This document shows, one piece after another, positions 25,096-62,681 of a DNA stretch of 64,000 bases; the first letter of the stretch is position 1, and each line of letters opens with the position of its first letter. A model generated the notes under the pieces. It had not been told where the DNA came from. It saw only the letters and a program-made list of their open reading frames with translations, and did not search any database. The stretch spans positions 3,517,983 to 3,581,982 of the forward strand of contig NZ_FXXA01000002.1 of NCBI RefSeq assembly GCF_900184265.1. Direction: 5' to 3'. The position numbers were made by a program, and so were the translations under genes. This stretch comes from Eggerthella timonensis. Lineage in GTDB: Bacteria; Actinomycetota; Coriobacteriia; Coriobacteriales; Eggerthellaceae.

Positions 25096-26313
25096 TTACT
25101 TACCCTGCACGGTGGTCTCGGCAGCTTCGGGGTTCTCGCCGGAGTCGACCGCCTGCATCAGCGTAGCCCACCCCTCGGGATCCTCGTAGCACAGCCACAG
25201 CCCGTCGTACTCTTCCATGAAGTCGCCCTTGTACGGGCCGGTGCACGTGTAGATGGTGGGATTGCCCGCCTGCGCGAAATCGGTGGCGAGCGAGATCATC
25301 GTTTGCAGATCGATGCTCGTGGACACGCACTGGGACAGGTTCTGAACCAGGCCGGGGATCTCGACCGGCGGCGCCTGCAGGACGTTCTTCATGAGCGCGA
25401 CCGCCATGGCGCGCACGTTGGACTGGCGGATGGCCTCCTGGTCGTCTCCGTAGGCGGTGCGCATGCGGGCGAGCGCCACGCACTGCTCGCCGTTGAGCAG
25501 CTGGTTGCCGGCCTCGATGTGGATGGGAGCCTGATCCTGCGTATACACCTGGTAATCGACGGTATAGGGCACATCCACGTAGATGCCCCCCATCGAGTCG
25601 ACGAACTCGGCAAGGCCCGCGAACTCGATCTCGACGTAATCGGATATCTTCACGCCGGTGAGGTCTTGCACGGCCGTAACCGCTCCGGCCGCACCGTTCA
25701 CGGCGAACATCTGGTTGATCTTTTCGACCTTGCCGTTGTACTCGTACGGCGTATCGCGCGGCACCGACACCATAGTGATGACGTGGCCCACCGGATCAAC
25801 ACGCACGAGCACGAGAGCGTCCGAACGCTCTCCGTAGGTTTCCCAGTTGTCCGACCCCACGAGCAGCACGTAAAACGGCTCCATCTGGGAATCGGAAGGC
25901 GCGAGCACGGTGTTGAGCTCGTTCTGCTCCTGCGCGTCGAGCGCCATGTTGCTGGAGAGGCTGCTCGTGTACCAGGCGCCGTACGCGGCGACGCTGCCCA
26001 CGAGCACAACGATCACGGCCAGCGCGATGAGCGCGGCCCGCTTCAGCTTGGTGTGCTTCTTTCGCTTCTTGCGCACGCGGATGATCTCGTCGGCCTGAGA
26101 GGCATAGCCGTAGTTCGCGGGCTGCTGGCCAGGATACGGCTGCTGGCCGGTCGGCCGCGGCGCGTAGCCGCCCTGCGGATGGGGACGCTCGCCGCGCGGT
26201 GCCGCGTTGTACGCGCCCGCCGGAGGCTGCCCATATGAGCGAGAACCTCCGCGCGGGGCGGAGGAGCCATGACGACCCGAGGCCGCCCTTCTATTGTGAT
26301 CGTCGAGTCCCAT
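25096..26313 (-). CDS. LytR-CpsA-Psr (LCP) family capsule-to-peptidoglycan ligase
   Basis: A 405-residue protein with a cytoplasmic Pro/Gly/Gln-rich tail of about 75 residues, a basic stretch RVRKKRKKHTKLKR, one transmembrane helix and an extracellular LCP domain. Within the domain are YVLLVGSDNWETYGERSDAL, VSVPRDTPYEYNG, KINQMFAVNGAAGAV and the late arginine-containing ALARMRTAYGDDQEAIRQ. LCP enzymes transfer polymer from undecaprenyl pyrophosphate to the cell wall. It is the first gene of the capsule operon. ATG 26313 is preferred; TTG 26355 with a nearby GAAGA is an alternative that adds 14 residues. Confidence 0.88.
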   Translation of the reverse strand: MGLDDHNRRAASGRHGSSAPRGGSRSYGQPPAGAYNAAPRGERPHPQGGYAPRPTGQQPYPGQQPANYGYASQADEIIRVRKKRKKHTKLKRAALIALAVIVVLVGSVAAYGAWYTSSLSSNMALDAQEQNELNTVLAPSDSQMEPFYVLLVGSDNWETYGERSDALVLVRVDPVGHVITMVSVPRDTPYEYNGKVEKINQMFAVNGAAGAVTAVQDLTGVKISDYVEIEFAGLAEFVDSMGGIYVDVPYTVDYQVYTQDQAPIHIEAGNQLLNGEQCVALARMRTAYGDDQEAIRQSNVRAMAVALMKNVLQAPPVEIPGLVQNLSQCVSTSIDLQTMISLATDFAQAGNPTIYTCTGPYKGDFMEEYDGLWLCYEDPEGWATLMQAVDSGENPEAAETTVQGK

Positions 26314-26405
26314 AGGGAGAATACGTTTCCTTATCGTCCGTCTCGTCCGTCGCAAAAATCTTCAACCCCGATTTGAGCCGGAGCACTCGTTTTTCCTACC
26401 TCATG

Positions 26406-26455: not shown

Positions 26456-26468
26456 CCCCCCCCCCCCC
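26456..26468. repeat. 13-base homopolymeric C tract (G13 on the capsule-operon strand)
   Basis: Thirteen consecutive C residues lie upstream of the capsule promoter. The 26356-26833 gap of 478 bases holds this tract, the capsule promoter and the leader of the divergent helicase gene; no gene was recognised in it. Tracts of this length are prone to slippage. Confidence 0.95.
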
Positions 26469-61250: not shown

Positions 61251-61294
61251 ATGTTACCGCGCCCGTGCGGCGCATGCCGAAAGAGAGGCTCCCC

Positions 61295-61744
61295 ATGATT
61301 CGCGAAGCGCAGCCGTCCGACCTGGAAGACGCAGCCCGGCTCGCCTCCTGCCTGTGGCCCGAGCATGCGCCCGCCGACCTGCAGCCGGAGTTCTCCGAGC
61401 TGATCGAGAGCGACGAGGCGGCGGTGTTCCTGCTGTTCGACGACGGATGCCGCAGCGAAGACGGCGCCTGCGGGTTCGCCCAGTGCCAGCTGCGCCGCGA
61501 CTACGTGGAGGGCACGTCCTCGAGCCCCGTCGGGTACTTGGAGGGCATCTACGTCGACGAGGCGTGCCGGCATCGAGGGCTGGCGCGCGAGCTGCTGCAC
61601 GCCTGCGAAACGTGGGCGAAGGAGCGCGGCTGCACCGAATTCGCCAGCGATTGCGAGTTGGACAACGCGGCCAGCCTGGCGTTTCATCTCCACGCGGGGT
61701 TCGAGGAAGCGAACCGCCTCATCTGCTTCGCGAAGCGATTGTAG
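61295..61744 (+). CDS. GNAT acetyltransferase, aminoglycoside 6'-N-acetyltransferase-like
   Basis: A 149-residue GNAT. It begins MIREAQPSDLEDAARLASCL and has GFAQCQLRRDYVEG, the core PVGYLEGIYVDEACRHRGLA that holds the acetyl-CoA loop, and ERGCTEFASDCELDNAASL followed by HAGFEEANRLICFAKRL. The GYLEGIYV, EFASDxxLDN and GFEExxRxxxF elements are those of the AAC(6')-I group. Whether it modifies aminoglycosides is unknown; anaerobes are naturally poorly susceptible. ATG 61295 has GAGAGG upstream; the frame is open to 61265. Confidence 0.8.
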   Translation: MIREAQPSDLEDAARLASCLWPEHAPADLQPEFSELIESDEAAVFLLFDDGCRSEDGACGFAQCQLRRDYVEGTSSSPVGYLEGIYVDEACRHRGLARELLHACETWAKERGCTEFASDCELDNAASLAFHLHAGFEEANRLICFAKRL

Positions 61745-61858
61745 CGCCGACGAACTCAAGAGCGACGTCCGCGAGCATCGCCTGCAAGCTCGGCCTCGCC
61801 GCCCTCGGCGAATTCGCCAGTTCACGCCGATTTCGCCAGCGTCGGTTTCGCTCTTGCC

Positions 61859-61927
61859 ATGATCTGGGAATTCATCGCGCTGTTCTTCGTGTTGGCCGCC
61901 GTCCAGCTCCGCAAGAAGCGCGCGTAG
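61859..61927 (+). pseudogene. Possible 3' remnant of a membrane-protein gene
   Basis: The short frame MIWEFIALFFVLAAVQLRKK ends RA-stop and looks like a final transmembrane helix with a basic cytoplasmic tail. No start region or upstream gene is recognisable. It lies just before the C11-tract promoter. Very tentative. Confidence 0.25.
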
Positions 61928-61947: not shown

Positions 61948-61978
61948 TTGACGCCCCCCCCCCCGGAAGTTTTATACT
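61948..61978 (+). promoter_or_regulatory. Promoter of the SdpI-like gene with a C11 tract in its spacer
   Basis: TTGACG (61948-61953) and TATACT (61973-61978) are 19 bases apart, and the first eleven spacer bases are a pure C run (61954-61964). Loss of two C would give the ideal 17-base spacer. The initiation point would be near 61985, with a leader of about 45 bases carrying GGAGC before ATG 62031. Confidence 0.7.
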
Positions 61979-62030
61979 GGAACGCGCGGGGACGGGTCGT
62001 CGTGTATGAACGGAGCCGAAGGAGCAGAAC

Positions 62031-62681
62031 ATGAAGAAGGGGTATCTCGCCGTCGGCGTCCTGTTCGCGATCGACGTGGTGGTCACGGCAGCGTTCGTGT
62101 CGATGATGCCCGACCAAGTGCCGGTTCACTTCTCAGGCGGCGAGGTCGATCGCATCGGCAGCCGCTACGAAACGTTCACGGTGGTGGCGCTCGCGTTCGT
62201 GTTCGGATTGTTCCTGATGCTGCTCGCGAAGTTCGGCGAGCAGGAGAACCGCGCCACCATGATGAAGCTCAACGTCGGCATACAGGCGATGTTCATCGCC
62301 GTATCGGTGTTCGTGTCGCTCAACACCCTGTCGTACGATCCCACCGCCGTCGCCGTGGGCGCGCCCGACGGCGCCATATCGAAGATCGGCATCCTCGTCA
62401 TCGGCGCCACGCTGCTGTTCCTCGGGAACCTCATGCCGAAGACGACGCGGAACGCCGCGTTCGGCATCCGCTTGCCGTGGACGCAAAAGAGCGACGAGGC
62501 GTGGCAGAAAGGCCAGCGGTTCGGCGCGTACGCGTCCATCCCCGCCGGCATCCTCATGATCGCCTGCGGCATCCTCTTCGACGGCGAAGTTGCGTTCGTC
62601 GTCGCCATCGTCATCTTCGTCGTCTGGACCCTCGTCAGTATCATCGGCTCGTACTTCGCCTGCAAGGATGTGCAGGGCTGA
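62031..62681 (+). CDS. SdpI-like / DUF1648 membrane protein
   Basis: A 216-residue protein with six or so transmembrane segments. The DUF1648 element PDQVPVHFSGGEVDRIGSRY follows the first helix, and the SdpI signature is GNLMPKTTRNAAFGIRLPW, then TQKSDEAWQKGQRFGAYAS. SdpI in Bacillus gives immunity to the SdpC toxin and signals to its repressor; most homologues elsewhere are of unknown role, perhaps protection against membrane-active peptides. It stands alone under a promoter with an unstable C tract, which would make its expression switchable. Confidence 0.85.
   Translation: MKKGYLAVGVLFAIDVVVTAAFVSMMPDQVPVHFSGGEVDRIGSRYETFTVVALAFVFGLFLMLLAKFGEQENRATMMKLNVGIQAMFIAVSVFVSLNTLSYDPTAVAVGAPDGAISKIGILVIGATLLFLGNLMPKTTRNAAFGIRLPWTQKSDEAWQKGQRFGAYASIPAGILMIACGILFDGEVAFVVAIVIFVVWTLVSIIGSYFACKDVQG

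What the first reader, a model, noticed from the sequence alone, without database searches (positions are those of the whole stretch)
61948..61978. C11 tract inside a near-consensus promoter spacer: phase-variation switch for an SdpI-like gene
TTGACG and TATACT are 19 bases apart and eleven of the spacer bases are a pure C run. Slippage by two would bring the spacer to the optimal 17. This is the classical layout of promoter-strength phase switching known from Haemophilus and Neisseria, here before a membrane protein linked to toxin immunity in a gut-type actinobacterial relative.
Basis: partly seen in the sequence, partly recalled or inferred. Interest (0 to 1): 0.72.

Follow-up and report, generated by a model that had tools for sequence, protein, structure and literature searches.

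The report
Slippery C-tract promoter of SdpI gene
In the gut bacterium Eggerthella, a gene for an SdpI-type membrane protein (a family that protects cells against a membrane-attacking peptide) has a run of cytosines inside its promoter; every species checked keeps the run but with a different length, which suggests that copying errors in the run turn the gene up and down.

Summary
The window is Eggerthella timonensis. TTGACG, C11, GGAAGTTT and TATACT lie where stated, with a 19-bp spacer. The C11 and one C13 are the only G/C runs above 6 bases in the 64-kb window. All five orthologs of this SdpI/DUF1648 gene, in four Eggerthella species plus one other genus, keep TTGAC-Cn-(7-8 nt)-TA(T/C)ACT-GG. 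The tract length differs every time: C11, C18, C13, C12, C10, giving spacers of 19, 26, 21, 20 and 15. Seven SdpR-linked paralogs have no tract. Comparable promoters in the genus peak at 16-17 bp, so slippage could tune this one. The genus lacks MutS, so slippage errors should go largely unrepaired. The genome holds 35 C10+ tracts against about 2-7 expected, several at signal-peptide junctions of surface proteins.

Best reading: a slipped-strand, promoter-spacer switch of the Neisseria opc/porA kind on an orphan SdpI. Switching within a clone and the effect on expression are inferred; no reads, strains or transcripts were available. The immunity role rests on family only, and no SdpC toxin was found in the genus. 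New member of a known kind, within an apparently undescribed Eggerthella set of G/C-tract loci.

The parts
61948..61953 (+). -35 hexamer TTGACG (TTGAC kept in 5/5 orthologs)
61954..61964 (+). C11 homopolymer in the promoter spacer (C18, C13, C12, C10 in the orthologs)
61965..61972 (+). 8-nt rest of the spacer, GGAAGTTT: length kept (7-8 nt), sequence diverged between species
61973..61978 (+). -10 hexamer TATACT (TACACT in one ortholog), followed by GG in 5/5
62019..62024 (+). Shine-Dalgarno AAGGAG
   Evidence: sequence
62031..62681 (+). orphan SdpI/DUF1648 membrane protein, 216 aa
61826..61927 (+). remnant of the 3' end of an ABC-2 permease gene; in G001 and G003 a TetR-ABC ATPase-permease cluster lies just upstream of sdpI, here lost

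Best explanation
The element is the sigma-70-type promoter of an orphan sdpI gene whose spacer carries a slippage-prone C-tract. Replication slippage adds or removes Cs, which changes the distance between -35 and -10 and so the promoter strength in a heritable, reversible way (transcriptional phase variation or a rheostat). In Eggerthella the spacer is n+8, so C8-C9 gives the 16-17 bp usual for this hexamer pair; C11 (19 bp) is predicted weak and C18 (26 bp) off. Slippage should go largely unrepaired because the genus lacks MutS. Some cells would thus express an SdpI-type membrane protein, presumably protecting against membrane-active peptides of siblings or competitors, while others save its cost. 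Shown: anatomy, conservation, length variation between species, absence of MutS. Inferred: variation within a clone, effect on transcription, immunity function.
For: Anatomy. Orthologs: G000 C11/19 bp, G001 C18/26, G002 (E. lenta DSM 2243) C13/21, G003 C12/20, G043 (another genus, 59% protein identity) C10/15, all with TTGAC and TA(T/C)ACT-GG. Synteny: a convergent CbiQ-type gene follows sdpI in both G002 and G043. Tree: the orphans (tract 5/5, no SdpR) separate from SdpR-linked copies (tract 0/7) with 100/99 support. Spacers of other TTGAC..TATACT pairs in the genus: 24 of 36 are 16-17 bp. MutS_V absent from 4/4 genomes while the control rings in 11 of 14; the actinobacterial alternative NucS does not repair indels (PMC8228993). 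Only about 5 of 48 sampled E. timonensis tracts have a counterpart among the E. lenta C10+ tracts, and all five differ in length, so keeping a tract at all is unusual. Precedents: opc poly-C promoter and porA -10/-35 spacing (titles cited in PMC4081817 and PMC11898584); G-tract slippage in a gut actinobacterium, B. breve (PMC9187656).
Against: One genome per species: no variation inside a clone or between strains of one species was seen. No transcription start or expression data. None of the five spacers falls at 16-18 bp, and C18 would need nine to ten losses, so the ON state is hypothetical. Homopolymer lengths in assemblies can be wrong by a base or so. G043 is 86% complete in 250 contigs.
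Confidence: 0.72

Rival explanations
1. The tract is a passive by-product of a MutS-less genome: slippage inflates C runs, the promoter tolerates it or is silent, and no adaptive switching occurs.
For: 51 C9+ tracts genome-wide, many in intergenic places; all five spacers lie away from the 16-17 bp optimum.
Against: The tract stays at the same place between two intact hexamers in 5/5 orthologs across two genera, while only about 5 of 48 sampled tracts are shared between E. timonensis and E. lenta. Both hexamers and the following GG are kept although the flanks have diverged.
Confidence: 0.17
2. The C-tract is a structural element rather than a switch: a G/C-rich, A-form-like spacer or a protein-binding site that sets the optimum spacing longer than 17 bp and works over a range of lengths.
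For: All four Eggerthella spacers exceed 17 bp (19-26) with intact or nearly intact hexamers. In H. pylori sabA tract composition as well as length affects RNA polymerase binding (PMC4081817).
Against: Lengths from 15 to 26 bp are too spread for one fixed geometry. The tract is absent from all SdpR-linked paralogs.
Confidence: 0.08
3. Assembly or sequencing error in homopolymers, or promoter-like sequence by chance.
For: Homopolymers are error-prone; the B. breve reference length did not match the main population (PMC9187656).
Against: Five separate genomes carry a tract of at least 10 Cs at the same place. The pattern is otherwise almost absent from 138 genomes and its reversed control is zero.
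Confidence: 0.03

Closest known systems
Neisseria meningitidis opc (poly-C) and porA (variable -10/-35 spacing) promoters; fetA C10-14 intergenic tract
   Same: G/C homopolymer tract in the promoter region, slippage, variable strength; opc and fetA use poly-C as here
   Different: Gram-negative pathogen surface proteins with proven switching; here a Coriobacteriia gut commensal, an SdpI-family gene, switching not yet shown
Bifidobacterium breve sortase-pilus G-tract slippage (PMC9187656)
   Same: gut actinobacterium, G10-G12 tract, slippage measured in culture and in mice
   Different: tract inside the coding sequence (frame switch), not in a promoter spacer
Mycobacterium tuberculosis espA/espR upstream homopolymers (PMC11898584)
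   Same: actinobacterial transcriptional or UTR homopolymer variants
   Different: polyA near the RNA polymerase alpha-subunit contact site, or polyG in the 5'UTR; not a -35/-10 spacer
Bacillus subtilis SdpRI and the sigma-W-controlled SdpI homolog (YfhL)
   Same: SdpI-family membrane protein; YfhL is also an orphan copy under its own control (YfhL by recall; PMC6818787 mentions a sigma-W-regulated SdpI homolog)
   Different: regulated by SdpR/Spo0A or sigma-W; no homopolymer known; SdpC toxin present in B. subtilis but not found in Eggerthella

Membership tests
Promoter-spacer phase variation by homopolymer (opc/porA kind) | homopolymer lies between -35 and -10 of a plausible promoter | tested here: met
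   hexamers kept in 5/5 orthologs (one -10 is TACACT)
Promoter-spacer phase variation by homopolymer (opc/porA kind) | tract length varies between lineages | tested here: met
   C10, C11, C12, C13, C18 in five species
Promoter-spacer phase variation by homopolymer (opc/porA kind) | tract length varies within a clone or species | not testable with these tools
   one genome per species; no reads
Promoter-spacer phase variation by homopolymer (opc/porA kind) | expression depends on tract length | not testable with these tools
   no transcript data; indirect only: spacer optimum 16-17 bp in the genus
Promoter-spacer phase variation by homopolymer (opc/porA kind) | slippage errors escape canonical mismatch repair (supportive, not defining) | tested here: met
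   MutS_V absent from 4/4 genomes, control positive
SdpI family | DUF1648 plus SdpI domains in a membrane protein of about 210 aa | tested here: met
   PF07853 and PF13630 over cut-off
SdpI family, SdpRI operon type | ArsR-type SdpR encoded directly upstream | tested here: not met
   absent for the 5 orphans, present for 7/7 full-length paralogs
SdpI family, cognate SDP toxin | SdpC toxin in the same genome | tested here: not met
   TIGR04032: 0 of 4 genus genomes, none of 138 over cut-off, B. subtilis control positive
SdpI family | confers immunity to a peptide toxin | not testable with these tools
   needs an experiment

The most novel reading that the evidence does not exclude
Eggerthella, and relatives rich in long C-tracts, run a broad G/C-tract phasome in a MutS-less background. 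It would combine promoter-spacer switches (orphan sdpI; an ABC exporter operon), frame switches at the signal-peptide junction of BspA-type LRR surface proteins, GGDEF/EAL enzymes and a NusG-like antiterminator, so that surface and peptide-immunity states vary cell by cell in the gut.
Probability: 0.6. Interest if true: 0.75.

Novelty: new member of a known kind. Interest (0 to 1): 0.62.

Why it matters
If true, it extends slipped-strand promoter switching to a human gut genus where phase variation has so far been reported as DNA inversions (PMC13174815), and ties it to a peptide-immunity-type gene. It would make bet-hedging against antimicrobial peptides testable in a cultured commensal and would mean that tract lengths, not only gene content, must be read when Eggerthella strains are compared.

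Tried and rejected
A genome-contig scan gave only distant SdpI relatives. A viral-contig scan with the E. lenta promoter gave nothing, so no extra strains were reached. SdpC toxin in the genus: not found; two weak hits in other genera are below cut-off and were not followed. A looser C-tract promoter pattern in the genus found only sdpI. A first SdpI tree was wrong because minus-strand loci were mistranslated; it was redone. Folding the tract upstream of the LCP gene gave no structure beyond shuffles (z -0.45). Library searches found no paper on homopolymer phase variation in Eggerthella or on SdpI with phase variation. Structure prediction was skipped: it would not bear on the promoter.

Full report
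Identity. The window lies in a 3,916,897-bp genome of two contigs, the size and scaffold number published for Eggerthella timonensis Marseille-P3135 (PMC6182555). G002 (3,632,260 bp) has the published size of the E. lenta type strain (PMC3035228).

Observation. TTGACG (61948-61953), C11 (61954-61964), GGAAGTTT and TATACT (61973-61978) are as described, with a 19-bp spacer. The downstream gene (62031-62681, Shine-Dalgarno AAGGAG) encodes 216 aa with DUF1648 and SdpI domains. In the 64-kb window no G or C run exceeds 6 bases except this C11 and a C13 at 26456-26468; the distribution is bimodal. Genome-wide there are 51 tracts of C9+ and 35 of C10+, against 10-26 and 2-7 expected from Markov models of the window.

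Comparison. The gene has five orthologs in 138 family genomes: four Eggerthella species and G043 in another genus. Every one has TTGAC, a C-tract, 7-8 nt, TA(T/C)ACT and GG before the ATG: C11/19 bp, C18/26, C13/21, C12/20, C10/15. The stretch between tract and -10 keeps its length but not its sequence, and upstream flanks have diverged, so the hexamers and the tract are what is kept. A strict pattern search across the family gives five hits, four of them at this promoter, with a reversed control of zero. The fifth hit, in G062, lies before an ABC exporter operon whose E. timonensis and E. lenta counterparts also carry C9 and C11 before TCGCTGT-TATACT: probably a second promoter of the same kind.

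Paralogs as control. Other SdpI copies in the family follow directly after an ArsR/SdpR-type gene and have no tract (7/7). The orphan copies have a tract (5/5) and no SdpR; the tree splits the two sets (100/99). Neighbouring genes show shared synteny (convergent CbiQ-type gene in G002 and G043).

Mechanism. For the same hexamer pair, 24 of 36 other occurrences in the genus have spacers of 16-17 bp. The sdpI spacers of 15, 19, 20, 21 and 26 are off this optimum, so losing two or three Cs would be expected to raise transcription in E. timonensis. MutS is absent from all four genus genomes while the control search works; NucS, whose presence here was not tested, does not correct indels (PMC8228993). 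Between E. timonensis and E. lenta five tracts are shared and all five differ in length (12/14, 10/11, 9/11, 13/14, 11/13). I therefore favour a slippage-tuned promoter. The steps not shown are within-clone variation, the effect on transcription, and the advantage.

Function of the gene. B. subtilis SdpI protects against the SDP peptide toxin (PMC6818787). Here no SdpC homolog passes the cut-off in any of 138 genomes and none at all is seen in the genus. A protective role against foreign membrane-active peptides is a family-based inference.

Known kinds. The layout matches Neisseria opc (poly-C promoter) and porA (-10/-35 spacing), cited in PMC4081817 and PMC11898584. In Actinobacteria, slippage is known in coding G-tracts of B. 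breve pili (PMC9187656) and in upstream homopolymers of M. tuberculosis and Gardnerella. For Eggerthella only inversion-based phase variation turned up (PMC13174815). I rate it a new member of a known kind.

Noticed in passing
L025, L035, L036, L037, L038, L039, L049 (G000 C2 about 0.56, 1.85-1.89 and 3.90 Mb): G10-G14 tracts immediately after predicted signal peptides; L035-L038 match BspA-type LRR_5 proteins, L025 matches no Pfam family. In L036 and L038 the signal peptide and the body are in the same frame; in L025, L035, L037 and L039 they are in different frames: apparent translational phase variation of surface proteins.
   Followed up: partly
L056:2001-2009 (own genome), L088:1001-1011 (E. 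lenta), L078:1505-1513 (G062): A second C-tract promoter, TTG(A)-Cn-(T)TCGCTGT-TATACT, before an ABC ATPase plus ABC-2 permease operon, with C9, C11 and C9 tracts in three species.
   Followed up: partly
window 26456-26468: C13 (G13 on the minus strand) about 110 nt upstream of a LytR_cpsA_psr gene (25096-26355, minus strand), lying between AAAAAAGCTC and GAGTTTTTT arms; E. lenta has C14 at the same place. The RNA fold is not better than shuffles.
   Followed up: partly
L029:2001-2012 and L032 (three G11 tracts): G-tracts at the start, and in L032 also at the end, of GGDEF/EAL genes; the L029 tract is kept in E. lenta (12 against 14).
   Followed up: partly
L092:1001-1011 and L047:2001-2010: A G-tract at the 5' end of a NusG/KOW-type antiterminator reading frame in E. 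lenta, beside a sugar-transferase-like gene in what looks like a polysaccharide locus; a tract lies at the matching place in E. timonensis (11 against 10).
   Followed up: partly
window 61826-61927; L017, L019: TetR, ABC ATPase and ABC-2 permease genes stand directly before sdpI in G001 and G003; only the permease 3' end is left in E. timonensis.
   Followed up: partly
window 61265-61744: AAC(6')-type aminoglycoside acetyltransferase relative next to sdpI; passes the NCBIfam NF043067 cut-off.
   Followed up: no
G040, G089, G130, G011 (family genomes): Very high counts of overlapping C11 matches (171 to 354) in some other family members, all in several contigs; some may be contig-end artefacts.
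   Followed up: no
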